Origin: Panicum virgatum
Lineage: Eukaryota > Streptophyta > Magnoliopsida > Poales > Poaceae
Assembly (NCBI RefSeq): GCF_016808335.1
Contig: NC_053139.1
Span: 39,862,464 to 39,926,463 of the forward strand
DNA length: 64,000 bases
Direction: 5' to 3'
The translations under genes were made by a program, and so were the position numbers. A model generated the notes under the pieces. That model was given only the letters and a program-made list of their open reading frames with translations, was not told the origin of the DNA and made no database searches. The first letter of the stretch is position 1. Each line of letters begins with the position of its first letter. Positions 231 through 34,496 of this stretch are shown one piece after another.

Positions 231-3200
231 ATGGCTGGCGAAAACTCCCCGGCGTCCAGTGCAGGCGACAAGGGGAAGGATGTCTCGGAGGTTGTGATCA
301 GGACGGTGCGGGAGACGAGCTCGCGGGACTGGCCGCAGCTCATTCGCACCAACTATGGCGAGTGGGTGGTGCTGATGAAGTGGCGGCTCAAGGCGCGCAA
401 GTTCTGGACAGCCGTGGAAGTCGGCACCAAAGAAGAGGATGAAGACGTCCAGGCCATGGACGCACTGCTGTCATCCACGCCACCAGAGTTCCACGAGGCC
501 ATCGGCAACAAGAAGACGGCGAAGGAGGCGTGGGACATGCTGGCTTCATTCCGAGTTGGCTCGGATCGAGCCAAGAGGGCCAAGGCGCAGTAGCTGCGCA
601 GGGACTTCGACGACCTGAAGTTCCGCCACGGCGAGGCTGTGGAGGACTTTGCGCTCCGACTCCAGTCGTTGGCAAGCCAGTTGGCAACGCTGGGGAAGAA
701 GTTGGAGGAGGAGGACGTCGTCTGCAAGCTGCTCCGCGCGTGCCCGGTCAAGTACAGCCAGATGGCGGTTACAATCGAGGCCACCTTGGACCTGGATCAG
801 GTCTCGCTCGATGACGTCGTCGGTCGACTTCGCCTGGCCGAAGGGCGTTCTGATGCGCCACTGGAGCGGAGGCAGGAGAGCGGCAAGTTGCTGCTCACCG
901 AGGAGTGGAACACGCGCATGAAGCTGCGGACCGGGGAGAACTCCTCAAGCCGCGGCGGGTATGCCGGCGGCAACAAGGCGCGCGGGAATCCGCGCGGGAA
1001 GGGGAAAAAGAAGAAGAACTTCGACCCCGATGTCTGCCGCAAGTGCGGCAAGATCGGGCACTGGGCTAAGGAGTGCCCGGAGCGGAAAGAGAAGAAGGAG
1101 GAGGCCCACCTAGCTCAAGAAGAGAGCGACGACGACCACGCGCTGTTGATGGTGCAGTACTGCGCGCTGAAGGATGGCGAAGCAGAGGAGGCGGACACGG
1201 AGCAGAGGACTGCGCCGCAGCCCGTCAACCTTGACGAGCCAGAGGCGCGGGTGTTGCTGGGCGCGGTCGGCGACGAGCTGGAGCAGAGGTGGTACCTGGA
1301 CTCTGGGGCCAGCAACCACATGACGGGGAGCAGGGCCGCCTTCTCTGACCTCGACGAAACCAAGACCGGGATGGTCAAGTTCGGCGATGGCTCGCGGGTC
1401 ATCATCCGCTGGCAGGGCACGGTCCTCTTCAGGTGCCGCAACGGCGAGCACCGTGCACTCCAGGAAGTGTATTACATTCCCCAGCTGCGCTCAAACATTG
1501 TGAGCTTGGGGCAGCTGGATGAGCACGGGTCGGAGGTGCTCGTCAAGGCCGGAGTACTAAGCATCAGGGACCGCGAACGGCGTCTTCTCGCCAAGGTAAC
1601 ACGTTCCCGTAACCGGCTTTATCTCCTGGATTTGAAGGTGGAGCAGCCGGTGTGTCTCGCGGCTGCGTGCACGGAGGAACCATGGCTGTGGCATGGGAGG
1701 TTCGGCCACTTGAGCTTTGAGGCGCTTGGACGCCTGGGCAAGATGGTGACCGGGCTGCCGCAGATCAAGCACGTCTACGAGCTCTGCGACAGCTGCTTGG
1801 CCGGGAAGCAGAGGCGTCTGCCGTTCCCAAAGGCGGCCAAGTACCGGGCGCAGGAGGTGCTCCAGCTGGTCCACGGGGACTTGTGCGGGCCCATCACGCC
1901 GACGACGCATGGTGGTCGGAGATACTTCATCCTGCTCGTGGACGACTGCAGTCGGTATATGTGGCTGCAGCTCCTGACGAGCAAAGATGAGGCGGCGGAG
2001 GCCATCAGGCGCTTCAAGGCGCGGGCAGAGGCAGACTCCGGGAAGAGGCTGCGCGTCCTCAGAACCGACCGTGGCGGCGAGTTCACAGCGGTGGAATTCG
2101 CCAGCTACTGCGCAGGAGAGGGAGTGGCGCGTCAACTGACGGCACCATATTCGCCACAGCAGAATGACGTAGTCGAGCGGCGAAATCAAACCATCGTTGG
2201 GATGGCATGCTCGATGATGAAGGCGAAGGTGATGCCGGCGGAATTCTGGGGCGAGGCGGTGAGCACGGCGGTGTTCATCTTGAACCGCTCACCGACCAAG
2301 GCCCTGAAGGGGATGACGCCGTATCAGGCGTGGTATGGGCGTAAGCCAAACGTCTCGTATCTACGCACGTTCGGCTGCATCGGGCACGTGAAGACCGTCA
2401 AGCCAGGCCTTGGGAAGCTTGAAGATCGGAGCACCAAGATGGTGTTCCTGGGCTATGAAGATGGGACGAAGGCCTATCGGCTCTACGACCCCGCCCGGGG
2501 GAAGGTGGTGGTGTCCCGGGATGTCATTTTCGACGAGGTGGCGGCATGGAGTTGGAGCACGCCCGCGGCAGGGGAAGCAGAGGGGTCCGGCGGCGGCTTG
2601 ACGGGCGAATTCGTCGTCGAGCAGCTGGTGATCGAGCGCCGGAGTGGCGCAGAGGAGGCAGCGCAGGAGCCAGAAGTGGAGGCGGTGGAGCCTCCAAGTC
2701 CTGGCACGGCGGAGGTTCCGCCAAGTCCTGGCGCGGCGAGTTCAGCGTCCCTAGCCTCCCCTGTTTTTCCAGAACAGGGGACCCCGACAGCGGCGGCGGA
2801 TCCTGAGTTCGCATCCCCCCCGTCCTCCTACTCGGAGTTCGTGGATGGCTACCACGACGGAGAGGAGCTCCGATTCAGGCGAGTGGACGACGTCATCGGT
2901 GATGCAGAGCTGCCGGGGCTGGCCTCGCGTCTCACCGATCCAGAGCTCATGCTCATGAGCGCGGAGGAGCCGGCCACGTTTGCGGTTGCGGAGCGTGACG
3001 CGGACTGGCGGAAGGCCATGATGGAGGAGATGCGGTCAATCGAGGACAACCGCACCTGGGAGCTGGTCGATCCGCCGGCGGGATGCAGGCCGATTGGCCT
3101 GAAATGGGTCTACAAGGCACGGCTCGTTGCCCGTGGTTTTGTGCAGCGTGAAGGGATTGATTTCGAGGAGGTGTTCGCACCGGTAGCTCGGATGGAGTCG

Positions 3201-4460
3201 GTGCGGTTGCTGCTAGCTCTTGCGGCAGCAAAGGACTGGCAGGTCCATCACCTCGACGTCAAATCGGCGTTCTTGAACGGCGACCTGGAGGAGAAGGTCT
3301 ACGTCAAGCAGGCGCCGGGCTTCGCGATGCCGGGGGCAGAGCACAAGGTGCTCCGGCTGCGGAAGGCTCTGTATGGGCTGCGCCAAGCTCCCAGGGCGTG
3401 GAACGCCAAGCTCGACACCACCATGGGTGAGCTTGGGTTCGCACGCTGCGCCACCGAGCATGCGCTGTACACACGACGACGGGGGAAGGAAGAGCTCATC
3501 GTCGGCGTGTACGTGGACGACCTGATCGTCACCGGAGCTCGGGCGCAGGACATTGAAGAGTTCAAATGCGAGATGGCGGCTCGTTTCAAAATGAGCAATC
3601 TCGGCGCACTCTCCTACTACCTCGGCATCGAGGTAAAGCAGGGGAGGGACTCCATCAAGCTGGGCCAGCGCGCCTATGCGCTCAAGCTGCTGGAGCAGGC
3701 CGGGATGACGGGCTGCAAGCCCATGGCGACGCCAATGGAGGAGCGGATCAAGCTGTCGAAGAACAGCACGGCGGCGAGGGTGGACGCAACGCGTTACCGG
3801 AGCATCGTCGGCGGGCTGCGGTGGCTGACGCATACGCGGCCGGACATCACGTTCGCAGTCGGGTATGTGAGCCGTTTCCTCGAAGACCCGCGGGAGGACC
3901 ACTGGACAGTGGTCAAGTGGGTGCTGCGCTACGTCTAGGGCTCTCTGGACATGGGCGTCATCTTCCCCAGGCACGGCGGGCTTCAGCTGACGGCATTCAG
4001 CGATGCGGACATGGCTGGAGATGTGGATGGACGGAAGAGCACCACAGGTGTGCTCGTCTCCCTTGGAACCGCACCGGTGGCTTGGCAGTCACTGAAGCAG
4101 AAGGTGGTGGCGCTGTCAACCTGTGAATCGGAGTACATTGCAGCGGCCACCGCGGCGTGCCAAGTTGTTTGGCTGCGCCGGCTGTTGGGTGAGCTCACTG
4201 GCGTTGAAGCTCGCCCACCAGCACTCAAGGTGGACAACCAGCCGGCCATTACGCTGGCAAAGAACCCCGTCTTTCACAACCGAAGCAAGTATATCGATGT
4301 GAAGTTCCATTTTCTTTGGGACTGCGTCGATGGGGGGCACCTTGTCATCGAGTTCGTCGACATCGGACGGCAACTCGCTGACATCCTCACCAAATCGCTC
4401 GGGCGTCTTCGGTTCTCGGAATTGAGGAAGATGATCGGCATGGATGAGGTCCAGGGCTAG
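231..4460 (+). pseudogene. Copia gag-pol polyprotein with two in-frame amber stops
   Basis: One reading frame of 1410 codons runs from ATG 231 to the stop at 4458-4460, interrupted only by TAG at 591-593 (gag) and TAG at 3936-3938 (start of RNase H). Domains in order: UBN2-type gag; CCHC zinc knuckle CRKCGKIGHWAKEC near 1037-1078; aspartic protease motif DSGASNHMTG near 1300; GAG-pre-integrase and integrase zinc finger (near 1690-1800); integrase core with DDCSRY, RTDRGGEF and VVERRNQ; reverse transcriptase with YVDDLIVTG near 3511; RNase H with SDADMAGD near 4000. Anomaly: near 3110 the usual spacer of about 15 residues between KWVYK and ARLVARG is absent, an in-frame deletion inside reverse transcriptase. 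The two stops and this deletion mean the copy is probably not autonomous. Confidence 0.93.
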
Positions 4461-4863: not shown

Positions 4864-6725
4864 CAAGTGAGATGTTGTTTCAGAATCTTGGTGGCAAAGG
4901 CTGCAGATTGGGTCGCACTAAATGCCTTTCATGATCAAGTTGTCCGCAGTCTGAATTTTCCCTTGCACCAACAGCCAAGTAAAGAAACGATGCTTGCCTT
5001 CAGTTTTGGCCTTCCAGATCGCCTGGGCGTTGAACGTGCAGTAAGAACCAGAGAACTGAACTTCATAAGCTGATTTGGATGAGTAAAGTCCATTTGCAGT
5101 CCACTTCCACGTGATAAGATCTGGCACATCTGAAAAATTAACCCCTTGCACCACTTCCCACAGAAAAATGAACTCAGATATCTCGGTTGCCGTCGACATC
5201 CGCCAGAGGCCTCTCGTCCATGTTTGATTGTCCACCTCATCTCTGAGTTTGAGCCCCTTCCTCCATGCTAACTTATACAGATTTGGTACCAGGTCCCTCG
5301 GAGCATGACCATTCACCCATGTTGAATCCCAAAACATTGTTGTTCGCCCATCACCGATCGTGACCATGGTAGAAGCACGGAACAGCTGCTTATCATTTTC
5401 AGAACAGGGAACCGGTGAACCTACCCAGGGCCTTTCAGGGTCCACCCAACTGTACCAGAGCCATCTCAGGCGTAAAGCCTGACTGAATTTAGCAAGATCA
5501 AGCACTCCAAGCCCCCATTTGCTTTCGGTTTCTTACAGTTGTCCCATGCAACCAGGCATTTACTGCCATTAGCCTCAGATGTTCCATTCCAAAGAAATGC
5601 CCGGCGAATCTTATCAATTTTTTTCAGTGCCCATTTCTTGAGATAAAAAACAGTCAGGAAATAAACAGGCATAGATGAGAGTACCGAATTAACCAGTTTC
5701 AACCGGCCGGCCCTATTGATGAAAGAGCCCTTCCAAGTTGGTAATCGATTGGCCACCTTGTCGATTACAGGCTGGATGTCGACTCTTCTCAGTTGCCTGA
5801 TATGCAGTGGCAGGCCAAGGTAGCTACAAGGAAAAAATTTTACTGGACATTGAAACCCCGACATGATGTCCTCCAGGTCGTAGCCGTCGCATCTTATGGG
5901 AAATACAGCACATTTGAATATATTAATATATAGTCCAGAAGCTTGGCCAAACATATTGAGAATATCTGCCACCAATTGCACCTCCTCCTTGACTGGATTC
6001 AGAAAGATGGCTGCATCATCGGCGTAGAGGCTTGCACGTAGTTTGGTGACAGTTGCACCCAAAGGTGACAACAGTCCATCCATAGTTGCAATGTGAAATA
6101 GCCTCTGTAATGGTTCCATAACCATGATGAATAACATTGGGGAGAGAGGATCACCCTGCCGAAGACCTTTGAAATGCTTAAACCAGTTGCCCCTAGAACC
6201 ATTCAAAAGTACAGATGTGGAGCTTGTTGCCAGGAGAATGGAGACCCAAGCTCGCCATTTTGGTTGGAACCCAAATTGCTCCAAAACTTCCATGAGAAAA
6301 TCCCACCTGACACTGTCAAATGCCTTTGCTATATCTAGCTTCAGGAATAGCCCTGGGCGCTTGTGCCGCTGGAGATCCTTAATGAGGTTCTGTGTATATA
6401 AGAAATTATCTTGAATGCCCCGTCTCCTAATGAATGCACTCTGTGCCCTTGAAATCAGATCATTTAGCACTAAAGATAATCTGGTTGCAAGAATCTTGGA
6501 AAACAAACTAGCAATGGAATGTGTCAAACTGATCAGCCGAAAATCCCCTAAGCAACGTGCATCTTCCTTTTTAGGTAGCAAAACCATATGAGCTTTGTTC
6601 AGGTGTTGAAAGTGTTGATCATGCTGCTGATGAAAGTAGAGCAGTGCTGCCATAATATCCTCCTTGATAGTCAACCAACTCTTTTTGAAAAAGATACCGA
6701 TATTCTCTGAGTTTGTGAAGAGATG
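4864..6725 (-). pseudogene. L1-type LINE ORF2 remnant (reverse transcriptase and zf-RVT)
   Basis: Reading leftward, 6725 to about 5505 encodes a non-LTR reverse transcriptase: FRLISLTHSIASLFSKILA, SAFIRRRGIQDN, LKLDIAKAFDSVRWDF, GLRQGDPLSPMLF and the catalytic SLYADDAAIF near 6020. A one-base indel near 5505-5515 shifts the frame into the downstream connection domain (TIGDGRTTMFWDSTWVNG). A TAG at 4918-4920 precedes CDPICSLC, the start of the zinc-knuckle zf-RVT motif, and coding similarity stops abruptly at 4864 where the copia LTR begins. The 5' part (endonuclease) is absent, as expected for a 5'-truncated LINE. It is an inactive copy, older than the copia insertion. Confidence 0.92.
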
Positions 6726-6860
6726 AACAGCAAGAGGATTCACCTGATCACCACAGCCGCCTGTAGGCTGTAGCTGCCGAGCTGTTATAGCCAACCCATG
6801 CTTCATTCTGTGGACTCGACTATAGAACAGCCGAACAGGGTAAACGTTTAGATCTTGAAC

Positions 6861-6911
6861 GCACGCACACACACCCACCCCCACACACGCACACACGCGC
6901 GCACACACACA
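6861..6911. repeat. CA-rich microsatellite
   Basis: Imperfect (CA)n with CG and CC interruptions, just upstream (in LINE orientation) of the LINE remnant. Confidence 0.8.
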
Positions 6912-9769: not shown

Positions 9770-10693
9770 TCAAATTTGCATCGGCGCACCCAACTGCGCC
9801 GTCGAGCCGCCGGTGGAACGGCGCCTCGCCCTTCGCCGCTCGTACTCAGGGTCGTCAGTGGGCAGCTCGTACCGGCACACCGGGCACGAGTTCCGTATGG
9901 CGAGCCACGGCCCAATGCACGCCCCGTGGTAGAAATGCCCGCAGGGCAGCCGCGTGGCGAGCTCCCCCTGCGTCATCCCGTCCTTGCACACGGCGCACCC
10001 CTGCGCGGCCTCCTCCCCGCGGACGGGCACCACCTGGAGCCGCTCCACCGCCGCGCGAGCCGCCGGCGGGGCCCCGCCCGCCGCCGCGTCCGCGAGGTGC
10101 CCCGGCAGCACCTCGAAGTCGTCCTCGTCCAGCGGCACCGGGAGCAGCTCCCACCCGACGCCGCTCCGGAAGATGCCGTCGAGCTCCTCGTCGCCGTCGC
10201 CGAAGTCGAACGGCGGCTCGTGGGAGAAGATCGAGTCGTCGTCCCCGCTGTCGATCCCCTCCATCGCGCCCAGCAACTCCCGCTCGTCGAGGAACCCGAA
10301 CACGTCGGCGTCGACATCGACATCGACTTCTAGTCCTCCCCCTCCGCCACCACCACCAGCAGCAGCAACTCCACCCCTGCCGCCGACGCCGGGGGCAGCG
10401 TCGGCGATCTCCTCCCACTCGAAACCGTGGTCGGCGAGCTCGTCCTCGAGGCAGTCCCAGAAGGGCGGGGAGCGGGGCCGCGAGGGGGAGAGGGCGCCGA
10501 GGTCGGGGTCGGAGTCGAAGGAGAAGGGGGAGCCCGGGGTGGGGGTTAGGGTTCCCAGGTCGAAGCCCGGGGAGAGGAGGTTGCGCGGGCAGGCGAGATC
10601 CTCCTCGATGGACTGGGAGAAGGAGACGTAGGAGAGGTCGCCGAACCCGTCGTCGCCGACCTCGAGGAAGAGCTCGTCGCCGAAGTCCGCCAT
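9770..10693 (-). CDS. RING-H2 E3 ubiquitin ligase, single coding exon
   Basis: The protein is 307 residues, probably a cytosolic or nuclear E3 that moves ubiquitin from an E2 to substrates. The C-terminal RING-H2 finger spans about residues 233-273: CAVC, then CGHFYHGAC, then CPVC, giving a C-x2-C, C-x-H-x2-H-x2-C, C-x2-C ligand series (H2 type). The block before it (AARAAVERLQVVPV) is typical of the CIP8/RNF115/RNF126-like plant group. The N-terminal 230 residues are acidic, low in complexity and Gly/Asp-rich, with no membrane segment. I chose the ATG at 10693 (MADFGDEL) because upstream in-frame sequence is a proline run from the poly-G tract and has no family look. A basic tail (ERRRARRR) follows the RING. 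The substrate is unknown. Confidence 0.9.
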   Translation of the reverse strand: MADFGDELFLEVGDDGFGDLSYVSFSQSIEEDLACPRNLLSPGFDLGTLTPTPGSPFSFDSDPDLGALSPSRPRSPPFWDCLEDELADHGFEWEEIADAAPGVGGRGGVAAAGGGGGGGGLEVDVDVDADVFGFLDERELLGAMEGIDSGDDDSIFSHEPPFDFGDGDEELDGIFRSGVGWELLPVPLDEDDFEVLPGHLADAAAGGAPPAARAAVERLQVVPVRGEEAAQGCAVCKDGMTQGELATRLPCGHFYHGACIGPWLAIRNSCPVCRYELPTDDPEYERRRARRRSTGGSTAQLGAPMQI

Positions 10694-11290
10694 GGGAGGC
10701 GGCGGCGGGGAGGGGGTTGATGGGGGGGGGGGGGGGGGGGGGGGGGTGCGGCGGTCGCCGCGTGAGGCGAGGCGTCGAGTTGGTGTCAGGGTTAACCTTA
10801 CCGGTGGGAACCGGTTCGGACCGGTTCCGGTTCCGGCCGGTATCCAACTGGTCAAAATTTAAAATTTAAATTTAAATTCAAAAAATAAAAAATTCTCAAA
10901 AAAAATCCTAAAAATACTTCAAGTTGTGATGAATCTAATGGTACCAAATTTTCTCAAAAATTCGTTTATTTAGTATAGTTTGCGAGGATTTAAAGTTAAA
11001 TCAAAAAAGAAAAAGAACAAAAGATAGAGGCATAATATAACTTTAGATATTTAAAGTTAAATTTAGATATTTTATGTTATCATAATGGTCATCTAAGCAC
11101 AATATAACTTTTTTCTTAGAAATCCGTTGACTTTTAGGTGTGAGTAAAAATTGCTGACAGACTGACGTATAAAATTAGTGATGAAAGAATAATTGATCCT
11201 ATTTTTTGAATTTATGTACGGGAAATAAACTATAAAAAGTATTAGAGCTATCGTAGATGAACGTGGTGTACGAAGTTATTATTTTTATAT
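10694..11290. other. RING-gene upstream region, then AT-rich DNA
   Basis: Next to the gene is a cluster of palindromic ACCGGT/CCGGTTCCGG words (10790-10845). Then follows AT-rich sequence (AATTTAAATTTAAATT and similar) with no coding signal. The ACCGGT cluster resembles dispersed grass repeat ends, but I could not classify it. Confidence 0.5.
10722..10746. repeat. Uninterrupted run of 25 G
   Basis: The run lies 29 bases upstream of the RING-gene start codon, in the presumed 5' UTR or core promoter. The transcript would carry C25. The plus strand can form G-quadruplexes. Confidence 0.95.
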
Positions 11291-13005: not shown

Positions 13006-14733
13006 ATGGGGATCGGAGATGGATCCTCAAATGGGAGCCAACAATCAGCGCGTAAGGAAATAAGAGATGAGACCACGCCACTTCTTCCAGTCAAGGTGGA
13101 GGAGGATGACGGGTTTCATGAGTTCAACGGTGCTTCATTCTCAGGGGCAGTTTTCAATCTGTCGACCACCATAGTTGGGGCTGGAATTATGGCCCTGCCA
13201 GCAAGTATCAAGATGCTGGGAATCATCCCAGGAATTCTGATGATCATCATTGTGGCACTGCTCACAGAGGCATCCATCGACATGCTTGTCAGGTGCAGCC
13301 ACCAGGGCAAGATTACATCGTATGGGTGGCTGATGGGTGAGGTTTTTGGACAGTGGGGAAGAATAGCACTGCAGGCATCCGTCATCATAAACAACGTTGG
13401 TGTGCTAATTGTTTACATGATTATCATTGGTACTCTTAAACTCACCTTGCTCCTTAAAATGAACAACTTTATATGCAATGAACCTTGATTAACGCCGGCT
13501 CTTATAAACTTTTAATAGGTGATGTATTGTCGGGAATGACATCAGCTGGCGTTCATCATCGCGGTATATTGGAGGGCTGGTTTGGAGCTCATTTGTGGAA
13601 TTCCCGTCCTATTGTTCTTCTTGCTACAGCTCTTCTGGTGTTTGCTCCACTGGTGAGCTTTAAGCGTTTAGGTATGTATACATGTTTGCATGTTGGGAAA
13701 AATATCCTTCAATATATTTCCTGTTAAGCTGCATCTTATTAAAACAAATCTTGTCATTTCCTGCAGATTCATTGAGGTACACATCTGCGCTATCAGTTGC
13801 CCTGGCAGTGGTTTTTGTCGTAATTACTGCTGGAATTGCTATCATCAAGCTCTTCAATGGAACTGTTGCAATGCCTAAACTTTTTCCAGAATTAGATGGT
13901 CTTAATTCTATATGGAATCTTTTTACAGCTGTCCCTGTTCTTGTTACTGCTTACATCTGCCACTATAACGGTATGCACTACCATTGCACAGATACTTTTC
14001 TGATTCTTCAAATATTCAGATTCTAAATTTATCCTTTCATGATTCCGCAGTTCACAGTATTGACAATGAACTTGAAGACAGAACACAGATCAAACCGATC
14101 GTGCGAACATCTCTGGTCCTGTGCTCCAGTGTTTACATTGCCACAAGCTTCTTTGCATATCTCCTCTTTGGTGAGGGCACACTGGATGACGTGCTTGCCA
14201 ACTTTGATGCAAATCTTGGCATCCCGTTCAGCTCAGTCTTTGATGATATAGTGCGAGTGAGCTATGCTGCACATGTCATGCTTGTCTTTCCCATTGTCTT
14301 CTTTGCCCTTCGGCTCAACTTGGATGGATTGCTCTTCCCCACATCGAGGCACATTTCTCGTGACAATAAGAGATTTGCGATCATCACCATCTCTCTCCTC
14401 ACAGTAATTTATCTTGCTGCAATTCTTATACCAAGCATCTGGGACGCATTCCAGTTTACTGGTGCCACAGCCGCTGTCCTTATCGGTTTCATCTTTCCTG
14501 CCATGGTCATACTTAGGTAACTAAATGTTTATTCTTGTGTATATACCTGCTAGCCTGTGCATTTTACATAACACGTAATAACATGACTTAATTTTTGCAG
14601 GGATTCTTATGGAATAGCTACCAAGCGTGACAAGATCCTTGCTGTGACTATGATCGTGCTTGCTGTTCTCTCAAATTCTGTCGCCTTATACAGTGACGCA
14701 ATGAACATCTTCCGTAAAAAGGAGGTGGCCTAA
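13006..14733 (+). CDS. AVT6-type vacuolar amino-acid transporter (AAAP/SLC38 family)
   Basis: Five coding exons: 13006-13429, 13519-13671, 13767-13970, 14051-14516 and 14601-14733, all GT-AG, giving 459 residues. The length fits plant AVT6 proteins, which export amino acids from the vacuole (family knowledge). A short acidic cytosolic N-terminus (TPLLPVKVEEDDG) is followed by the family signature SGAVFNLSTTIVGAGIMALP at the first transmembrane helix. About ten further hydrophobic helices follow, including IIPGILMIIIVALLTEASID and the C-terminal TMIVLAVLSNSVALY. The start is preceded by an intron acceptor (ending 12987) in the 5' UTR, so a leader intron of about 600 bases is likely, perhaps from 12367. 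The 3' UTR probably extends to about 15050. Confidence 0.93.
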
Positions 14734-20249: not shown

Positions 20250-23200
20250 ATGGGCGCCGTGGCGTCGACGGTGGCGGCGCGGTTCGCGTTCTTCCCGCCG
20301 AGCCCGCCGTCGTACGGGGTGGAGCCGCCGCCGTCGCCGGCGGCCGCGGCGGTGGACTCCGAGGTGGTGGAGCTCAGCGGGGTGCCCGTGCCGCGGGGCC
20401 GCGGCGTGGAGGCGCGCCGGCTGCCCACCAAGCGCGGCACGGAGGTGGTGGCCATGTACGTGCGCCAGCCCGGGGCGCGCCTCACGCTGCTCTACTCCCA
20501 CGGCAACGCCGCCGACCTGGGGCAGATGTACGAGCTCTTCGTCGAGCTCAGCACGCACCTCAACGTCAACCTCATGGGGTACGTGCCGTCCCGTCGCGCC
20601 GCGCTTTGCTGCGGGCATTGGGTGCTTCTCGTCGAGATCCTGCCTGTCGTGGGCAGCTTATTTTCATTAGTACGCTGTGTTGTTAGTATCAGGTCGCTTG
20701 ATTGGGTAAAAAGGAATGCATCTTTTTAGGACTGTTATTGTTGGCATTGCAAGTCCTGTATGTTCTAGTTTAGAACTTGCTTGCCTGCATATGATTGTTC
20801 GGGTAAATTTGGGATCTTGCGATTCATCGAGCAATGTTCGACTCCGTAGCGGCTTTTTAGGAGCTTAATTGGATGCTTCATTTTCATTAGTAGAAATCTT
20901 TCATGTCCATTGATAGAAATTGTAATCTAGAATTGAAGTTAACTTTGGGGGGGGGGGGGGGGGGTCGTCCAAGGTCGTGCACGCAGTTGGATTGTGTATC
21001 TGTGGAAGTTTAGTGTCAGACTCTGTTGCAAAATGTACTTGTTTGGGAAGTTTGTGCCACAGGGCAAATGTTGAGATATTATGTGGTGTTAATTGTTATA
21101 TCGGTGGGAATGTCCTAGGCTGCGACAGTGCAGCTTATCTGGATGTGTGGTTCAGAAAGTTAGGCGGTTCTGGTGTACAGTGTCTGGGTTTTATTGAAGC
21201 TGGTAATTGTTTGCTAGTGCATACTTAAGCTGACTGGAAAGTTTGGATGTTGATGTGCTGTACTGTTGGGCACGTCTGCTTCATTGTCATCAGTACCAGA
21301 GTTGCTCGGAACTTCTTGGGCTTCTTGGATCTGGGGTAGGAAGACTGGTCGTCTATATTGGAGCTTCTGGTTGTTAATCGAGTTTGACTTGTTATCGAGT
21401 GTTAAATAATCCGGTTGGTATTATAGAGCTGCTATGTTAGTTGTAGTTTTAGTGGGAGTGTGGGACCCATGTTGCCTAGGTAATCTTTGGTTAGAATCTG
21501 AACAATATCACTAATCTATGGATTCTAGTTGTGCCTGATTGAGATCGACTGTCCATTCACTTAACGTAGTGACTGGAAGCTGCATATGTAGGGATAGAGT
21601 CATGCTTGATGCTCACTTCTTACTCCTTGTTTGCTTGCGCTCTACCAAATTTACTTGCTGTTACCAACCCATGGCTACCAAATTTCACTTGGCTAACATA
21701 AGCTACATTCTGCCTCGCTGGCCCTGCGGTGACACACTGTCACTGGCAGCATGAACTTTAACTTTCCCTGTTGCCATTCTATTGGGTAAAACCCTCAGTA
21801 ACAACCTCCATGTCCAAGTGAAATGTGCTACAGCATGCTTCCTTGGAGGTGTTTATCCTCTTTCCACTTGACTCCCATGGTTAGCCACTGTTGAAAGTTG
21901 TCAACATTGCCCAGCTGAAGTCCAGTTTCTCAATTTAAAAGTTTTATGTTCGAATTGGAGGTTTGAAATATCTACAATACTTCATATTTGGTTTCTCTTT
22001 GTTCCAATAGCTGTCCATTGGCTTCTCTAATCCAAGTTTTGCCCTTGTTTTTAAGTTTGGAGGACATGCTTATAGATTTTGCCCTACAAAGACATTTTAG
22101 TTATCAGGTTTTGCTGAGGGCTTAGGCATTTCTGGTTTGCTGGCTATATTTACTAATGGGCTGGGAAGAGCTGTTGGTTGAAATGTTTTACAGTCGTCTA
22201 TTCGGACCTAGTCGCCATGGCACCGATAAGGTGATTAGTCGAGATTAGTCGTCGATCAGGCCGATTAGTCGAGCCTAGTCGTCTGTATAGTCGTCCTATC
22301 ATGCTAGGACCGATATGATATGTATACTATTCATTACATAATGTATATCAAGCATGAACACCGCAATGATGGTCAGTTGGTCACTCACTTGTGAGATTTG
22401 GGTGACAGCAGGTCTGAGGCACATGCATTTGTGCATATATACCTAAAACCTAATGGGCCTAATGCCAGCCCAGCAGCCCAACCACACAGTTGACGCGGCC
22501 CATTACTACAAATCTGATCGTTTTCCTACCTAGTCGAACGACTAATCGCGACTAATCGACGACTAATCGGACGACTAGAATTCTAGTCGCTCATACCTAG
22601 TCGTTGCTCCTTATCGGCACCAAGGGAACGATAAGCCTGACTAATCGCGACTAATCGCGATTAGTCGGACGACCGTAAAATATTGGGTTGATCAGAATCA
22701 TTGAACTTTACAGTAGATCTAATACTTCATTAACTAATTTACAATCTTGTGGTATGAAGTATCTGGTCAGCTCTTTACTCCAACATAAATTTTCTGATTT
22801 GCCCTTTTGTTTCGTACTGGAAACATTATTTTTTGCCATATTATAGCTTTCATCCTAGTTTAACTTTTCTATGGTAGAGAACTAGCTACAATTTGATATG
22901 TAGTTTGACTTTTTAACTGGTGTACCTATCAGACTGTTGCCTTGACACAGTGAAAGCTATACCGTGATTGGTTATTATGCATTATCTCTATGGTTTTTTT
23001 TTGAACTTCCTATTGTGCTCACGATATATATGCTTCTCATTTTGATGCCTCATCAGTCATGAACTTTGTGTGCCTATATTACTCGGCGTTAGTAACCTCT
23101 GAATTGATATTTTCCTGCAGTTACGATTATTCGGGGTACGGACAATCATCTGGGAAGGTATAAACTCACATTTTTCTAGGAAAGTACTTTCCCTTTCCCT

Positions 23201-24961
23201 GTTTTCTTTCATGCTATTGTCTGAGTTCCAGGCCCCCTTATATAACATGACTGATCTGTTTAGTTCCTTTTGATTCTGCAGCCAAGTGAGCAAAACACTT
23301 ATGCTGATATAGAAGCTGTCTATAGATGTCTTATTGAAACATATGGAGCCTCTGAGGAAAACATCATTTTATATGGTCAATCAGTTGGAAGTGGCCCTAC
23401 TTTGGATTTAGCATCCCGTTTGTCTCATTTGCGAGCAGTTGTACTACACAGCCCAATTTCATCCGGTTTAAGAGTGATGTATCCTGTGAAACATACGTAT
23501 TGGTTTGACATATATAAGGTGAGTACTTTACTTCATTCCTTCTAATTTGATCATATACTTGATCTAATCACTACCAAATTATTTACAGAACATTGACAAA
23601 ATTCCTCTGGTCAAATGTCCTGTGTTAGTAATCCATGTGAGTATTCTTCTGACAGCATATTTTAAAATAATGTTCAACTCCATGTGCGCACATGCATGGT
23701 GTGTTTCTGTTATCATTAGATTCTGTACTGCAGATAGGGAACTTGGGTTCAAGGCTTTTACATTTGATGGCTATATATGCTTTCGTACTGTGTTATTTTC
23801 AAAATATGTTCCAAGATTGTTGTTACCACCGATGTTCTGACATTTTTATTAAGCTCTGCACTTTTTTATCTCAGTGGAGAGACCTAATGCAATTTTGTGT
23901 ATACACAGTTTCCTCGTGGGGGCATGCTACTTTTTGGGGTCCATAAATTGATTTAAATGTTAGACAATCTCTCTGTACCATCATACCTTCTCCCACTGTT
24001 GACTGAAGGAATACATTATTCTATCACTGTACTAGAATAGTGTTTTTAGTTTCCAGAGTTCAGGCCATAAGGTCCTTTGCCTGTATTTTTGACTGAGATG
24101 TCATAAATTCCTGCATATAAAATGGTGGTTATGGGTGCCATACACGAGTGACATAAGTATTTCATAATCTTTCATCACTGTTAGACTGTCCTAATGTTTA
24201 TATTGTAATTGCTGCCATTTTGAAAGGTACACGTTTCCTTTTTAATAACTAGTAGGTCAAATTACTGCGTTACAAGATTTTCTGCCGATTGGTTTTGTAA
24301 AGATTTTTTTTTACCACCTCAAGGCGCTAAACATATCTCGTTGCAGGGTACAGCTGACGAGGTTGTTGACTGTTCTCATGGGAGGACACTTTGGGAGCTA
24401 TCTAAAGTGAAGTATGAGCCTCTGTGGGTCAAAGGGGGAAACCACTGTAATTTGGAGCTATATCCAGAATACATTAAGCACCTGAAAAGGTTTGTTACAG
24501 CAATAGAGAAATTGCCACCAGTGAAAGATGAATCTCCGGAGAGTTCAGGTCCTTTGGATCCGAGCGAAACTGGATCTGATGGCGCAGAGAACTCAAGGCG
24601 AAGCACAGATATTAGGGATAAACCGAGGTCAAGCATTGATCATAGACCAAGCACAGATCGACGGGAGAAACCGAGGGGCAGCATAGACCGTAGAGATAAA
24701 AGCAGAAAAAGTGTGGATCAACCTGACAAACCACGGGCTAGTGTGGATCAACTTGACAGGCCACGGAAGAGCATTGACCGGTTTGTCTATTCGCTTCTAT
24801 GCATTCTGTTTTACGTTTCATTGTGGATTTGTATTCCACGAGATATCCCGTTTTATGTCCTCCTGACTCCTGCAATGGCTCGATGTCGCAGATTTGGAGG
24901 GATGATGAGATCAGTCAAGTTGTGCAATATTGACTGCTTCACTGCGGCTTCTGGGAGCTGA
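20250..24961 (+). CDS. ABHD17-like alpha/beta hydrolase
   Basis: Six coding exons: 20250-20578, 23121-23157, 23282-23518, 23589-23636, 24347-24780 and 24892-24961, all GT-AG, giving 384 residues. It belongs to the alpha/beta-hydrolase group related to animal ABHD17 depalmitoylases; the plant substrate is not established. Nucleophile motif GQSVGSG puts Ser at about residue 156, acid Asp in GTADE at about 221, and His in KGGNHCN at about 250. [13 protein letters not shown] forms the oxyanion side. The N-terminus MGAVAST fits an N-myristoylation signal, suggesting membrane attachment. The tail (about residues 285-360) is a charged repeat of (K/R)-x-S-x-D units with KPR, ending [13 protein letters not shown]. 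The last splice (24780 to 24892) restores this conserved end; reading through gives a different hydrophobic tail. Intron 1 is 2.54 kb. Confidence 0.92.
20947..20964. repeat. Run of 18 G in intron 1
   Basis: An uninterrupted homopolymer inside the first intron of the hydrolase gene. It is the second long poly-G run of the window. Confidence 0.95.
22182..22682. mobile_element. Fold-back-like element built of ATTAGTCG words
   Basis: The terminal inverted repeats are TTTTACAGTCGTC (left) and GACGACCGTAAAA (right). Both arms contain many copies of GATTAGTCG or its complement CGACTAATC, so the two ends can pair over about 100 bases. TTGGTTGA (22174-22181) and TTGGGTTGA (22683-22691) flank it and may be an imperfect 8- or 9-base target duplication (hAT- or Mutator-like). 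It lies in intron 1 of the hydrolase gene. Confidence 0.75.
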
Positions 24962-27630: not shown

Positions 27631-27638
27631 CTATAAAT
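27631..27638 (+). promoter_or_regulatory. TATA box of the RGF-like gene
   Basis: CTATAAAT lies 53 bases upstream of the first ATG used below (27684) and is followed by a pyrimidine-rich stretch, a normal plant core-promoter layout. It implies a transcription start near 27660-27670. Confidence 0.6.
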
Positions 27639-27683
27639 CTACCCTTCTTTGTTCTTCTTTCTCCTTCCCTTTCCGTTAGTTAC

Positions 27684-28372
27684 ATGACAGACATACCTAA
27701 AAGCAGTAGACAGTTAGTTATGCAGCCGTTAAACTGTATAAGCTTCTTGCTCGGGCTGGCCATCCTCTCAGCCACCCTTGGCCCCTTTGTCACTATTGCA
27801 CATAGAGGTCGATATCAGCACTTCTTTTGTGTTTGCATACTTGAGTCAAGTTCATTTTCCCTCTTTCATTCTCTTTTCAGTGTAAGAAAGGATGTTTGGC
27901 AAACTGACACACATGTCTGTTTTCAGAATTGCTGATGGTAACTGGCAGCAAGAGAGGAGCAGAAATCAAGCTGGTAAGAATCGGGAGCACTTCCATTTAA
28001 GTTTTTAGAATTATGTAGCCAATAGCCATGACTCATCCCAAAATACAGTAATTAATGATGAGTCAAATGCAGGACCTGAGTGTTGACAAAACCAGCACAG
28101 ATGAGGATGTTAGAAGCAATGTATTGACAGGACGAAAGCTAGCTTTTGGACATGCAGTCACGGAGCAGAAGGATGCAAATAATTCTGGAAGCAAAACAAG
28201 CTCAGGTGCAAAAAAATCTGTTGGAAAATGTGGGCAAGGAGGAGGGAAGGATTTGAGTATGAACTGTTATTTTAGAAGTAGAAAACCTCCACCAAAGGTT
28301 TACTTTGATGGCCACATTCCCTTCACTGCTGATTACCGTTCACCCCGGAAACACCCTCCCAAGAACAACTAG
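27684..28372 (+). CDS. RGF/GOLVEN/CLEL peptide-hormone precursor, cassette 1
   Basis: Three exons: 27684-27807, 27927-27973 and 28073-28372, giving 156 residues (144 if ATG 27720 is used). Exon 1 encodes a secretory signal (MQPLNC followed by the hydrophobic FLLGLAILSATLGPF). Exon 3 ends exactly at DYRSPRKHPPKNN followed by TAG. This matches the RGF/GLV/CLEL consensus: DY at the start for tyrosine sulfation, then basic residues, PP and a terminal N at the extreme C-terminus. Family members are secreted, sulfated by TPST, cut from the precursor and perceived by RGFR/RGI receptor kinases to control root meristem and gravitropic growth (established). The propeptide is variable, as usual. The first ATG is preferred by position; the second fits the signal peptide equally well. 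Splice phases are 1 then 0. Confidence 0.85.
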
Positions 28373-28715
28373 AAGTAGATAGGGTACAGACAAGAAACTA
28401 TAACTAGCTTGTTTTCCTTTTTTTCTCTCTTCTGGTCTGCCATCCTATATGTCAAATATGGCCTTCCTTCTTGTTAGATACATGTGTTTAGTTATGATAA
28501 AATAATAATTTGTTGTCTTTTCCCATGTCTTGATACTGAAGTTATTTTTGGGAAAGGTTCAACAATTCTGCATCATTTTATTCAAGGTTTACCTGTATTC
28601 TTCAATTTTCTAGCTGTTACATTTGCAAAACACCAATATTTCTAAAAAAGAAAAGAAGGAAATCCTAAATCAACATTGTATGTTCAATTTGAATATTGTT
28701 ACATTCTTAATGCAG

Positions 28716-29498
28716 GAGAAATTAAGAATTATCCAACTAATCCACGCGCGCCTTCAAACCTAAAGGTGATCTCCTGCTCCTTCCTGACATCCTATATCTA
28801 CATGTTTTCTTGGTCAAGAGCTAGCATGAATTTATAATTAATAGTACTTTCATGAATTTTTTCTTTTAGAAAAATGCAAGTTCATACTTCCGCACTTCAT
28901 GCTATCGGAGTGTTCTTACCAGCAATATGTGGACTTGCACCTGTACGTGTTAGATAGGTCAAAACTCTACACGATCTTGTCAGATAGTAATGATTTTGAA
29001 ATTCATGAACACACAATTTCGAGGAACTGCTACTCTATAACAGACAAATATTTTCTACGAACCGCTATCCAAACATCCCAGAAAGTCATCATGACAATTA
29101 TCATCTATTTATCTATCTTTTATTTGCCCTGTGTTTTCCTTAATTAGTGGATTATGGGCCACTACTAATTTCCTAGTAAAATGTCTCAGGATAGTAGTAG
29201 CTCCAGGATGCAGGCAGGACCATCCATGAAAAGAATAAAACCAGAAGGAAGCACATCTGTGATAGCACTCAACATGCCAAATCCTCAACAATTCAGAATA
29301 TTGCCATCAAAGCATTCTGCCATGAATTCAAATGCAGGCTTCAAACAAAAGTTGAGGGATTCAATCGTGCGCAACACATTATATAGAATAAATGAGGATT
29401 CAAAGGAGAAAATGCTAGAGGCCAGTGATGAGGTTCTGAAATTTCTTAACAGAGACTACCATGTCTCTCCCCATAAGAGGAGACCTGTTCATAACTAA
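28716..29498 (+). CDS. Second RGF/GOLVEN-type peptide cassette (alternative 3' exons or gene lacking its own exon 1)
   Basis: Exon 28716-28765 (50 bases, acceptor TTAATGCAG, donor AAGGTGATC) enters at phase 1 and leaves at phase 0. Exon 29190-29498 (acceptor ATGTCTCAG) enters at phase 0 and ends DYHVSPHKRRPVHN followed by TAA. That C-terminus fits the RGF/GLV consensus, with DY near the start, basic residues, P and a terminal HN. I found no convincing signal-peptide exon between 28372 and 28716. Exon 1 of cassette 1 (ending at 27807, phase 1) would join this pair in frame and give a secreted precursor of about 160 residues. The acceptors of both last exons look related (AAATGCAG-GAC against AAATGTCTCAG-GAT), which supports an ancient duplication of the exon pair. 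The alternative is a separate gene with an undetected first exon. Confidence 0.7.
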
Positions 29499-30884: not shown

Positions 30885-33458
30885 TCATCTAACCAGGGAA
30901 CCAAAATCAACTGATTGAAGAGAGATGTGTCCCAAATATAGATCTTTAACATGCTGGGTGCACAATCCAATTCGTCTACCATCCAAACTCCCATGAATCG
31001 ATGACGAGAAACCTGTCCTCCATCCAGGAAAACGTTGTTTCTCCTTCACGTGAAGCAAATACATACTTGGTGATGCAGATTGGCAGCCCATGACAAAGCA
31101 GTTGAATTGTCGAGTAGGGACTCTAACTCTTGACAGTGTTAACACAAATAAACCACTACTAGAAATGCCATACATCAAAGCTTCATCAGTGGAAGCAAAA
31201 GAGTAACTAGATTCTAGAGGTTTAATTGTTGCCTCAAAATCCTCGACCATTGGGATGCCATGATCATCAAGTTCAAACCGCTTTTCTGTCAATTTTTCAT
31301 ACATCCGATACTTTGCAGATAGTGTCCTGATGCAGGATTTTCTGACACTTTCAACAAACATAAGCTGAAGTTCTTTAAAATTGTCAACCTCAGAAAACCA
31401 TCTTATCCAACGATGAATTATTCCTGCAAACCAACTTACTATTAACTCATCATCTTGCAAGACAAGGGCCGAAACATGTCTAGGGAAACCTTCGAGATTA
31501 ATTAGACCATATCGATAAAGGCACTTCTGAATATAGCTAAGAGAAGCATGGATTTTAATGATACCACCGTCAGTGCACGTACTAATTGATTCCACCCTCT
31601 TTAAATTGGACAACAATGCTTCCGTAGCAGCAGTTTCTGATGAGATGTAATCTTTAGCTTGCTTCTGAAAGTTGTAGAACGCATCCCTAAGGTCTTGCGC
31701 AAGTGCTGGTTCAGCAATATATTTAGATACGAGAACATCCTCATTTAGCTCATTTTTGGCATTGACATCCTGCATCCATACCTTCAGTAAAGTTTTGAAC
31801 CAGTGATCTGTCTTCATTCCCTCTTTCCTGAATTTTGCAATATGATCCAGCAAAGGGGTGCTAAGGCCAAGTGGCTTGATCTCACTCTCTTTTATTCTTC
31901 TCAAACCATATGCCAACCACTTCTTTCCTAATCTAAGATTCATAGCATCCCAAATCTCTTGCTTCTGAGAAGCAAACAAACCAATCTTCTCCTTAAGCTT
32001 ATGCACAGCTTTCAGTTTAGCATTCTCCTTTGTTTCCACCCTGACGAAAACACCACAAAACTGTAACCCCTGCATATTCCTTTTGACTGGCATAAGACGC
32101 AACCTATCATCAACTTCCAAGTAAAGTGATTTTCTTAAGTAAGCGACAATTTCAGATTTCACATCTTCTGCAACATCTCTGGATCCAGAAACTGCGACAA
32201 AAATCTCATCCATATACCTACAAGCATATAGCTTTATCTTTGTCTGACAACCTGTTTGATCTTCACTATTTTCATCTTTCTCCTTAAGTTGACTCCGAAA
32301 CCAGCGACGCAAATTTGACCCATGGTCCTCTGAAACATTTGTTGCCTCTGAACCAAGGCCTTCATGTTTCAAGCAAATCTTAAACACCTCATGGTCAAAA
32401 CTGTCAAGATATATGTTCATCAGGATTGGTGCAAGTACTCCTTCTTGGGGCAGCCCATGGCCCTTTGGGTATCCACCAAATACCAAATTGATAACCTTGG
32501 CATCAAACATTTTTTGCATGAATGCAACTAACTGGATGTCCTCGATCTTCTCCTGTATCAGATAAATAAGCTTAGAGTTTACATTGCTATCAACCTCTTT
32601 GTGCAGTGGGACAGTAAAGAACCAATCTGGAACCCCGATTTCATCTGATACAAACCTGAGGGCTGAGTGATACCCTCGCCCACTGCGGCAACCATGTGAT
32701 ATCTTTGAGAATTGAGGCCTGTAGACAACCTCAAGGACTACCCTTATCGCTTCCTGAACCACTTTCAAGTTCAGCCTAGGAAGAACAAGGCACCCTTCTC
32801 CTCTTCTCTTCGCCACCACTGAGAAAGCATTTGCTCTGACATCAAACTCACCACTCCTCAGATGCTCTGCCAGCGTGACAAAGCAGACATCGTCCTTTGC
32901 AGACGCTAGATCAACGTTCGAATTGAGCCGGACAATGTCGTACGCATCCTCCAGTGTCTCGGCACTCGCCACGACCTTACCCATGAGGTCGTAGAACTTG
33001 CCGTTCAGGTACTGCGCTTTGACCCTCTTCTTGATGCGGAGCTCGGCTAACCGCTTCCGCTCCATCCGCGTGAGCGGCTTCCTCTGCCTCTGGACGGCCT
33101 CGGCTGACTCCTCCGCGAGAAAGGCCAGGCTCTTTGCCAAAGACACCGGCGGCGGCGAAGGCCGCGGTTCGACGGCTTGCTCCGCTGCGTCCTCTACTCC
33201 ATCCAGCGAGAGGTGATGCGCACTGTACCGCCGGACAAGCGTGGCGTAGACTCCTGTTACAGCAAAGAAAACGGCAAAAACATTATGCAGCGTTTCGACG
33301 GCGCTGGGGTTGGCCGTTGGCGTTGGGATGAGGGAGAAGTGAGGAGTACCTTGCCGTTGATGCCGCTGCGTGGGTCGCCTGCAGAGCTCCCGGAGGAGGC
33401 AGCCACGACCGGACGCCACAATGGATATGGCGCCAGCCGCCAGGCGTCCTGGGGGCAT
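30885..33458 (-). CDS. Nuclear-encoded mitochondrial group II intron maturase (nMAT3/nMAT4 class)
   Basis: Two exons: 33350-33458 and 30885-33253, separated by a 96-base GT-AG intron, giving 825 residues. These proteins enter mitochondria and help splice group II introns in organelle transcripts (established for plant nMATs). The N-terminus MPPGRLAAGAISIVASGRG looks like a targeting peptide. Next comes a reverse-transcriptase region (LPRLNLKVVQEAIRVVLEVV, GCRSGRGYHSAL, GLPQEGVLAPILMNIYLD) in which the catalytic YADD box reads RYMDE, so polymerase activity is doubtful. Then come the X/thumb maturase domain (about residues 450-600) and an HNH-like C-terminal domain (CFVMGC, then GLCTQH). Having that last domain argues for the type-2 nMATs rather than nMAT1/2. 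The intron is open and divisible by three, so retention would insert 32 residues. Confidence 0.9.
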   Translation of the reverse strand: MPPGRLAAGAISIVASGRGCLLRELCRRPTQRHQRQGTPHFSLIPTPTANPSAVETLHNVFAVFFAVTGVYATLVRRYSAHHLSLDGVEDAAEQAVEPRPSPPPVSLAKSLAFLAEESAEAVQRQRKPLTRMERKRLAELRIKKRVKAQYLNGKFYDLMGKVVASAETLEDAYDIVRLNSNVDLASAKDDVCFVTLAEHLRSGEFDVRANAFSVVAKRRGEGCLVLPRLNLKVVQEAIRVVLEVVYRPQFSKISHGCRSGRGYHSALRFVSDEIGVPDWFFTVPLHKEVDSNVNSKLIYLIQEKIEDIQLVAFMQKMFDAKVINLVFGGYPKGHGLPQEGVLAPILMNIYLDSFDHEVFKICLKHEGLGSEATNVSEDHGSNLRRWFRSQLKEKDENSEDQTGCQTKIKLYACRYMDEIFVAVSGSRDVAEDVKSEIVAYLRKSLYLEVDDRLRLMPVKRNMQGLQFCGVFVRVETKENAKLKAVHKLKEKIGLFASQKQEIWDAMNLRLGKKWLAYGLRRIKESEIKPLGLSTPLLDHIAKFRKEGMKTDHWFKTLLKVWMQDVNAKNELNEDVLVSKYIAEPALAQDLRDAFYNFQKQAKDYISSETAATEALLSNLKRVESISTCTDGGIIKIHASLSYIQKCLYRYGLINLEGFPRHVSALVLQDDELIVSWFAGIIHRWIRWFSEVDNFKELQLMFVESVRKSCIRTLSAKYRMYEKLTEKRFELDDHGIPMVEDFEATIKPLESSYSFASTDEALMYGISSSGLFVLTLSRVRVPTRQFNCFVMGCQSASPSMYLLHVKEKQRFPGWRTGFSSSIHGSLDGRRIGLCTQHVKDLYLGHISLQSVDFGSLVR

Positions 33459-34496
33459 TTCGTCGAGCAGGTGGTGTGCGCGGCGGGGACGAGGCGGCTG
33501 GCTCCGTTTCCTCCCAGAATGAATCGTGACTTCGGCGAGTTCAGCTCCCACGCGACCGAGGCGGCGAGGCTCGTAGCACGTTTACCTGCAGGGAGCCGAG
33601 TCCAGACCTCAATTCAACAGGTATGCATCGGCCGCCGGACTCGTGATCGAGTTTGCGCAGACCTCAATTCAACAGTGAAAAATCGAGTTCGAGTATGATG
33701 CATGCCTGCACGCAGAGCTCGGCCAGCCGAGGGGAAGGCTCGGGCAGCAGCGGCGCGCACAGATCGTCGTTCGCCCTCGCCCATTGCCATCCTTCGTTCT
33801 TGAAACGAAACCCGTTGCCATCACTGGTCCGTGCGCACTACTCTGCCACCAATGTAAAGCAACGGCTGGCACACGACGGCGGTGGTTGAGGGACCAGAGG
33901 GAGGCAGCGAACGTGGCGGCAGCCGGCGGCGGAAGCCCGATGCGTACACGGGACGACGGCGAACTGGGGAAAAGAATGGAGAGAGCTGAGGGGCTGCACG
34001 AGCCGTCGAGCCGCAAGTTGAGCGAGCGGCTGGACAGGGAGCCGAGCACAGCATTCCTGAGACGCGTGTTACAATTGGAGCCACAGCCACCACCACCACG
34101 CCAGAAGAGCGGGCCCACGAGTCAGCGTCATGTAGAACCCATCTCGTAATACTAAAAGCTAAATTAAAAATAGAATAAAAACAAAAATTCAGGGTTTAGC
34201 GCAAAGACCAAGCAAAAGTCTCCTGCCAACCCCAACCAGCATTTTTTTATTGTCTGTATGTATACCTATACAAAGACAAATCCATAAGCACACCAGTTTC
34301 AGCTGTACTTTTGGACTGCTATATCTCCTTTGAATTACAGACACAAGCGGCAGGCAACATACGCTCAAAGTCATGTGCCGAAGGCCCCTACCAATTGGTG
34401 AACAAAACAATCAAGTATGAACGATTCAAAGTTTCAGACCCTTTTCACAGACCAAAGTGAAATTTCAAGTTTTCAACTATCTTGAATTCGTGTGTA
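33459..34496. other. Intergenic DNA between two minus-strand genes
   Basis: 33459-34150 is GC-rich (promoter and 5' UTR of the maturase gene) with no recognised protein. 34190-34496 is the likely 3' UTR of the Nudix gene. Confidence 0.5.

What the first reader, a model, noticed from the sequence alone, without database searches (positions are those of the whole stretch)
27631..29498. One signal-peptide exon followed by two exon pairs that encode two different RGF/GOLVEN-type peptide hormones
Exon 1 (ends 27807, phase 1) carries the secretion signal. Exons 27927-27973 plus 28073-28372 end in DYRSPRKHPPKNN. Exons 28716-28765 plus 29190-29498 have the same phases (1 to 0, then 0) and end in DYHVSPHKRRPVHN. 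Both C-termini fit the RGF/GLV/CLEL consensus with DY at the start and N at the end. No second signal-peptide exon is visible between the cassettes. The simplest reading is that alternative splicing from a shared exon 1 makes two secreted hormones with different receptor-facing ends. I know of no described RGF locus with this design.
Basis: partly seen in the sequence, partly recalled or inferred. Interest (0 to 1): 0.88.

Follow-up and report, generated by a model that had tools for sequence, protein, structure and literature searches.

The report
One grass gene, two root hormones
A single switchgrass gene appears to make one of two different root-growth peptide hormones depending on whether a splice site inside its third exon is used, an arrangement proposed before in spruce and seen here in relatives from several grass subfamilies.

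Summary
One signal-peptide exon (ATG 27684, ends 27807) precedes two exon sets ending in RGF/GOLVEN/CLEL peptides: A, DYRSPRKHPPKNN, and B, DYHVSPHKRRPVHN. Of 21 grass B precursors with sequence upstream of the B exons, none joins 27807 to 28716: 18 use a donor inside the A exon (window 28205), 2 use one at 28256, and 1 another nearby donor. B therefore shares exon 1, exon 2a and the first part of exon 3a, and splicing removes the A peptide as part of an intron. A results when that intron stays. In Zizania, A and B carry one locus tag and agree at 111 of 111 residues up to this donor. The homeologous copy in the same genome keeps every exon, frame and splice site; its annotated protein shows this join but then loses the B frame. 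A is a Group H type peptide, B Group R. Spruce CLEL14/CLEL22 has the same design (PMC4016512), so the kind is known. My searches found no grass report. No RNA reads were available.

The parts
27632..27638 (+). TATA box (TATAAAT), the only TATAAA from 27500 to the end of the B exon
   Evidence: also present in the homeologous copy
27684..27807 (+). Exon 1, coding part (ATG 27684, second in-frame ATG 27720): signal peptide core MQPLNCISFLLGLAILSATLGPFVTIA; ends phase 1
   Evidence: 124/124 aligned bases identical in the homeologue plus one 3-base gap
27927..27973 (+). Exon 2a, 47 nt, used by both A and B
   Evidence: 47/47 identical in the homeologue
28073..28205 (+). Exon 3a, part shared by A and B precursors
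   Evidence: paired A/B proteins identical or nearly so up to this point
28205..28206 (+). Alternative donor d1 (AGCTCAG|GTGCAA), phase 1; joins to 28716 to make B
   Evidence: 18 of 21 informative B precursors; kept in the homeologue
28206..28372 (+). Exon 3a, A-only part: exon in A, intron in B; carries the A peptide and stop
28256..28257 (+). Second alternative donor d2 (GATTTGA|GTATGA), phase 1
   Evidence: used in Dichanthelium P0010 and Oryza punctata P0033
28331..28369 (+). Mature peptide A, DYRSPRKHPPKNN (Group H type); ends predicted by family resemblance
   Evidence: group rule from PMC8329595
28373..28715 (+). Non-coding rest of intron 3, AT 70%; 3' UTR of A or intron of B
28716..28765 (+). 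Exon 2b, 50 nt, B only
29190..29498 (+). Exon 3b, B only; carries the B peptide and stop
29454..29495 (+). Mature peptide B, DYHVSPHKRRPVHN (14 residues, Group R type); ends predicted by family resemblance
   Evidence: group rule from PMC8329595

Best explanation
This is one RGF/GOLVEN/CLEL gene with a peptide-choice switch in its third coding exon. One promoter and one signal-peptide exon feed both products. If the transcript keeps exon 3a to its stop, the precursor (156 aa) ends in the Group H type peptide DYRSPRKHPPKNN. If splicing uses a donor inside exon 3a (28205, less often 28256), the A-coding stretch leaves with the intron (510 nt from 28205) and exons 2b and 3b are added, so the precursor (220 or 237 aa) ends in the Group R type peptide DYHVSPHKRRPVHN. 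The two choices exclude each other on one RNA; with the 28205 donor both precursors share their first 102 residues. Shown here: exon structure, open frames, conservation, and relatives that diverge exactly at this donor. Inferred: that both RNAs are made in this plant, that the peptides are sulfated, cleaved and perceived by RGI/RGFR receptors, and that the ratio is regulated.
For: Three homology searches gave 63 distinct proteins: 25 end like A (one, P0005, is the window's own), 32 like B, 6 like neither. Of the 32 B-ends, 21 carry sequence upstream of exon 2b: 18 at d1, 2 at d2, 1 at another nearby donor (Eleusine P0047), 0 direct. Two of the 6 others, P0016 and P0023, also show the d1-to-2b join. 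Zizania locus tag GUJ93_ZPchr0006g40852 has both A (P0009) and B (P0045), identical for 111/111 residues, then splitting at SSG|, the d1 codon. Oryza-type P0006 (A) and P0046 (B) agree at 102/102, Urochloa P0001/P0025 at 100/101, P0020/P0030 at 87/88. P0006 (2202-nt contig) and P0015 (1524-nt contig) read e1-e2a-e3a as one frame, so those contigs look like spliced RNA for A. Switchgrass protein PVAP13_4NG243200 (P0016) shows SSG|EIKKDPTNPRAPSNLK; its contig length, 50,680,782, equals that of C13, which holds the homeologue. That homeologue keeps all exons, frames, d1, d2 and the acceptors; gaps inside exons are 3 and 6 bases. No second signal-peptide exon found.
Against: No RNA reads could be examined. 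The B precursors are database gene models whose evidence I cannot see; models can prefer long frames. No contig-level spliced B was found, only exon-3b frames and genome annotations. P0016 and P0023 continue out of the B frame after exon 2b. Aristida and Stipagrostis annotations list A and B as neighbouring separate genes. Triticum, Hordeum, Alopecurus and Festuca gave A but no B. Maize A and B hits look like different copies. Ka/Ks between homeologues rests on few changes: A-only 0.26, B-only 0.46, but shared part 0.70.
Confidence: 0.85

Rival explanations
1. One reading: exon 1 (27807) splices directly to exon 2b (28716), skipping 2a and 3a, giving a 160-aa B precursor.
For: The join is in frame in both the window copy and the homeologue because donor and acceptor are both phase 1.
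Against: 0 of 21 informative B precursors use it. The two of 63 proteins that scored best for it (P0044, P0063) are unspliced reads through intron 1, not this join.
Confidence: 0.07
2. Two neighbouring genes with separate promoters; B has its own start.
For: Aristida (ACP4OV_014144/014145) and Stipagrostis (ACP70R_043388/043389) are annotated as two genes with consecutive tags.
Against: Those B models start inside exon 3b and show no signal peptide by eye. There is no TATAAA and no usable signal-peptide exon between the cassettes in the window. In 19 of 21 informative B precursors the exon 1 core is present upstream.
Confidence: 0.05
3. The B cassette is a decaying relic of a duplicated gene and makes no hormone.
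For: P0016 carries a frame-shifted B end; no B found in Triticum, Hordeum, Alopecurus or Festuca; the maize B model P0048 lacks exon 1 as annotated.
Against: The B end is kept in full-length precursors of 18 named species. Mean major-residue frequency is 0.87 in the B peptide against 0.78 in the exon 3b pro-region, 11 sequences. Frames and splice sites are intact in both homeologues.
Confidence: 0.03

Closest known systems
Spruce CLEL14/CLEL22, CLEL18/CLEL23/CLEL24, CLEL15/CLEL25 and CLEL20/CLEL26 (Strabala et al. 2014, PMC4016512; abstract, passages and sections 5 and 6 read)
   [quoted passage not shown] shared 5' part.
   Different: Conifer, partly EST-guided; two genes. Here it is a grass locus kept in several grass subfamilies. 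No sequence comparison with the spruce genes was made here.
Paired Group H / Group R RGF-like sequences of gymnosperms (Furumizu and Sawa 2021, PMC8329595; passages read)
   Same: One H-type and one R-type peptide on precursors that are otherwise strikingly similar.
   Different: The paper had seen such pairs only in gymnosperms and asked how common they are within and outside them; this is a grass case.
Ordinary single-peptide RGF/GLV/CLEL genes (Arabidopsis, maize ZmRGF1; PMC8708909, passages read)
   Same: C-terminal DY...N peptide, introns in most members; secreted precursor.

Membership tests
RGF/GLV/CLEL peptide hormones | C-terminal 13-16 residue peptide beginning DY, proline in second half, ending in N | tested here: met
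   Both ends fit; 25 A-ends and 32 B-ends among 63 proteins; length range from PMC4016512
RGF/GLV/CLEL peptide hormones | N-terminal signal peptide | tested here: met
   Hydropathy only (best 12-residue mean 2.44); no SignalP available
RGF/GLV/CLEL peptide hormones | Tyrosine sulfation and proteolytic release | not testable with these tools
   Needs mass spectrometry
RGF/GLV/CLEL peptide hormones | Perception by RGI/RGFR receptors | not testable with these tools
   Needs binding or genetic assay
Group H and Group R subtypes (PMC8329595) | H: His at position 8. R: central R/K residues, and H before the last N in seed plants | tested here: met
   A has H8; B has K-R-R and ends HN, with one residue more than the usual 13
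Alternatively spliced two-peptide CLEL genes (conifer type) | Alternative donor inside the terminal coding exon leading to another exon with a different CLEL peptide | tested here: met
   d1/d2 in sequence and in relatives
Alternatively spliced two-peptide CLEL genes (conifer type) | Transcripts of both kinds observed | tested here: inconclusive
   A: contig-level spliced frames (P0006, P0015). B: gene models only
Alternatively spliced two-peptide CLEL genes (conifer type) | Common descent with the spruce loci | not tested
   Spruce sequences were not fetched; PMC8329595 reports no conservation between pairs of different gymnosperm groups outside the mature peptide

The most novel reading that the evidence does not exclude
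Grasses have kept a splice switch that chooses between a Group H and a Group R root hormone from one promoter since before the rice and sorghum lineages split. The A-coding stretch is exon in one product and intron in the other, and A-type RNAs may run on through the B exons as a long 3' UTR, so the switch is a single intron-retention decision under selection. This would be the first such RGF locus recognised in flowering plants.
Probability: 0.6. Interest if true: 0.72.

Novelty: new member of a known kind. Interest (0 to 1): 0.62.

Why it matters
A published study of the family asked how common paired H/R peptides are within and outside gymnosperms (PMC8329595). This locus answers that they occur in grasses, and it gives a testable switch in crops and models (rice, sorghum, Setaria, Brachypodium). 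One splice decision would set the ratio of two ligands in the same cells, so splicing, not promoter choice, could tune root meristem signalling. It also warns that surveys with one model per gene, or with a length limit of 200 aa as in PMC4526923 (passages), can miss one of the two hormones: 19 of the 21 informative B precursors exceed 200 aa (lengths).

Tried and rejected
Direct e1-to-2b splicing was tested against 63 proteins and not seen. A separate signal-peptide exon for B was sought and not found. Chance was tested by simulation. The first test for A-ends, was badly written and flagged none; one search has the corrected count. Pfam gave no family for the A or B precursor or for three B relatives; the PF27951 label on most B relatives is precomputed in the protein database and I could not read what it stands for. 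Scans of bacterial/archaeal and viral contigs found no relatives, as expected for a plant gene. Nine literature searches listed no report of this grass locus that I recognised; six peptide strings from the family occur in no held paper; passages of the review PMC11756074 (first 300,000 characters held) contain no word beginning 'splic'. Most listed papers were seen as listings only, and subscription papers and figures are not covered. I considered that A RNAs run through the B exons, because the A contigs P0006 and P0015 are 2202 and 1524 nt for about 0.5 kb of coding sequence, but could not read those contigs.

Splice-site strength was judged by eye only. Ka/Ks rests on few changes and is weak; in the shared part it is 0.70.

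Full report
What was checked. The coding part of exon 1 starts at ATG 27684 (second ATG 27720), 46 bases after a TATA box. Joined in frame, e1+2a+3a gives a 156-aa precursor ending DYRSPRKHPPKNN (A). ORF ends of the form DY-x(9,10)-[HN]N-stop occur twice in the window and 0 times in 60 simulated sequences. The structure is not chance.

Which plant. The window lies on contig C4 (48,084,986 bases) of a 1.13-Gb genome. The only other match to the locus in that genome is on C13, whose length (50,680,782) equals the contig length given for Panicum virgatum protein PVAP13_4NG243200. The window is therefore most likely switchgrass, and C13 carries the homeologous copy. The labels K and N used in my scripts are inferred.

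How B is made. Three protein searches returned 44, 28 and 46 rows, 63 distinct proteins together; those with an organism name are grasses. 25 end like A (one of them, P0005, is encoded by the window itself), 32 like B, 6 like neither (the neither set is P0016, P0020, P0023, P0044, P0062, P0063). Eleven B-end proteins are exon-3b frames alone (P0051-P0061) and cannot inform the junction. The other 21, from 18 named species, carry sequence upstream of exon 2b: 18 join at a donor inside exon 3a equal to window 28205 (AGCTCAG|GTGCAA), 2 at 28256 (GATTTGA|GTATGA; Dichanthelium P0010, Oryza punctata P0033), 1 (Eleusine P0047) at another nearby donor, and none joins exon 1 directly to 2b. Two of the 21, P0048 (maize) and P0050 (Leersia), lack exon 1 as annotated. 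P0016 and P0023, which do not end like B, also show the d1-to-2b join. Both donors are phase 1 and give open frames of 220 and 237 aa in the window.

Paired products of one locus. In Zizania palustris one locus tag (GUJ93_ZPchr0006g40852) has an A protein (P0009) and a B protein (P0045) that agree at 111 of 111 residues and then split at SSG|, the codon cut by d1. Oryza-type P0006 (A) and O. nivara P0046 (B) agree at 102 of 102, Urochloa P0001/P0025 (two species) at 100 of 101, and U. humidicola P0020/P0030 at 87 of 88, splitting at the same place. P0006 and P0015 come from single contigs of 2202 and 1524 nt and read through both early splice junctions without introns, so they look like spliced RNA of the A kind; this is inferred from the frames. 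P0062 (2206-nt contig) reads e1-e2a joined with intron 2 still present. P0015 (A) and Brachypodium P0049 (B) split at the same place. Of the 13 A-end relatives aligned, 11 show the e1-e2a join; P0018 and P0037 do not. Aristida and Stipagrostis are annotated as two genes with consecutive tags, with B starting inside exon 3b and no signal peptide, which I read as incomplete models.

The second copy in the same genome. The homeologue keeps every exon, both stops, d1, d2 and all acceptors, with gaps of 3 and 6 bases inside exons. Coding exons 1 and 2a are identical in all aligned bases (124/124 and 47/47, plus one 3-base gap in exon 1), against 89% and 94% in introns 1 and 2 and 92% in intron 4. 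The non-coding part of intron 3 differs at 13 of 338 sites against 54 of 631 in introns 1, 2 and 4 (Fisher p 0.005), with 44 gap columns not counted; this may reflect control of the splice choice, but it is one comparison. Ka/Ks is 0.26 for the A-only part and 0.46 for B-only, on 3.5+3.5 and 4+7 synonymous and non-synonymous changes, and 0.70 for the shared part on 1.5+3.5. These numbers are too small to prove selection. The annotated PVAP13_4NG243200 (P0016) shows the d1-to-2b join, so the join is annotated in switchgrass, but that model then uses an acceptor a few bases inside exon 3b and loses the B frame.

Conservation. Mean major-residue frequency for the A set (14 sequences: the window and 13 of the 25 A-ends) is 0.88 in the mature peptide and 0.86 in the A-only pro-region, against 0.66 to 0.73 in the three shared segments. 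For the B set (11 sequences: the window and 10 of the 21 informative precursors) it is 0.87 in the mature peptide, 0.78 in the exon 3b pro-region, 0.85 in exon 2b, 0.75 to 0.80 in exons 2a and 3a, and 0.91 in exon 1. B was found in Panicoideae, Chloridoideae, Arundinoideae, Aristidoideae, Oryzoideae and Brachypodium (subfamily placement recalled). Triticum, Hordeum, Alopecurus and Festuca gave A but no B; in the last search only the 7993 candidates sharing most words were scored, so this is weak evidence of loss.

What it is. By the published rule (PMC8329595, passages), A is Group H (His at position 8) and B is Group R (central R/K, HN at the end, one residue longer than usual). The best reading is one gene whose third coding exon holds an optional intron start. 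If the intron stays, the RNA encodes A; if it is removed, the A stretch is lost and B is added. That both RNAs are made in this plant, and that the peptides are sulfated, released and sensed by RGI/RGFR receptors, is inferred from the family.

Compared with what is known. Strabala et al. 2014 (PMC4016512; abstract, passages, sections 5 and 6; [quoted passage not shown] They also state that Arabidopsis splice variants do not change the active peptide. Furumizu and Sawa 2021 (PMC8329595, passages) saw H/R pairs only in gymnosperms and asked how common they are elsewhere. PMC8708909 (passages) describes one RGF domain per protein and no tandem duplicates in monocots. A 2026 paper detected no RGF in nine monocots (PMC13074997, passages), which shows how easily grass members are missed. 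My nine literature searches listed no report of the grass case. It is a new member of a known kind, in a new lineage.

Verdict. Observation confirmed; interpretation right in outline, wrong in the junction and in the claim of no precedent. The main gap is direct RNA evidence for B.

Noticed in passing
window 29183-29206; L003 homeologue: Tandem acceptors at exon 3b: CAG|GATAG...AG|CTCCAG, 11 nt apart in the window and 5 nt in the homeologue. The annotated P0016 uses the second one and loses the B frame, so a third, peptide-less product is possible.
   Followed up: partly
window 28373-28715: Non-coding part of intron 3 diverges less between homeologues (13/338) than introns 1, 2 and 4 (54/631); the C13 copy carries a tandem duplication of about 30 bases there.
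   Followed up: partly
proteins P0004, P0018 (A) and P0048 (B), Zea mays: Maize A and B hits differ in their shared part, so A and B may have been split between duplicated copies; the B model lacks exon 1.
   Followed up: no
proteins P0012, P0013, P0019, P0021, P0037: Triticum, Hordeum, Alopecurus and Festuca show A only; possible loss of B in core Pooideae.
   Followed up: no
window 30885-33551 (-): Single ORF of 888 aa with reverse transcriptase (PF00078) and type II intron maturase (PF01348) domains, like a nuclear-encoded organelle maturase (resemblance recalled).
   Followed up: partly
window 20250-24961 (+): Multi-exon gene that reads like an ABHD17-type serine hydrolase; recalled resemblance, no Pfam hit on the two pieces scanned.
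   Followed up: no
window 639-4460 (+) and 4918-6908 (-): Long ORFs that read like a Ty1/copia element and a LINE-type reverse transcriptase; labels recalled.
   Followed up: no
window 9770-10855 (-); 13984-14520 (+): RING-H2 zinc finger protein; part of an amino acid transporter gene (Aa_trans).
   Followed up: no
B-type relatives, exon 3b region: The protein database labels most B relatives, including frames with exon 3b alone, with PF27951, which the local Pfam copy did not report.
   Followed up: no
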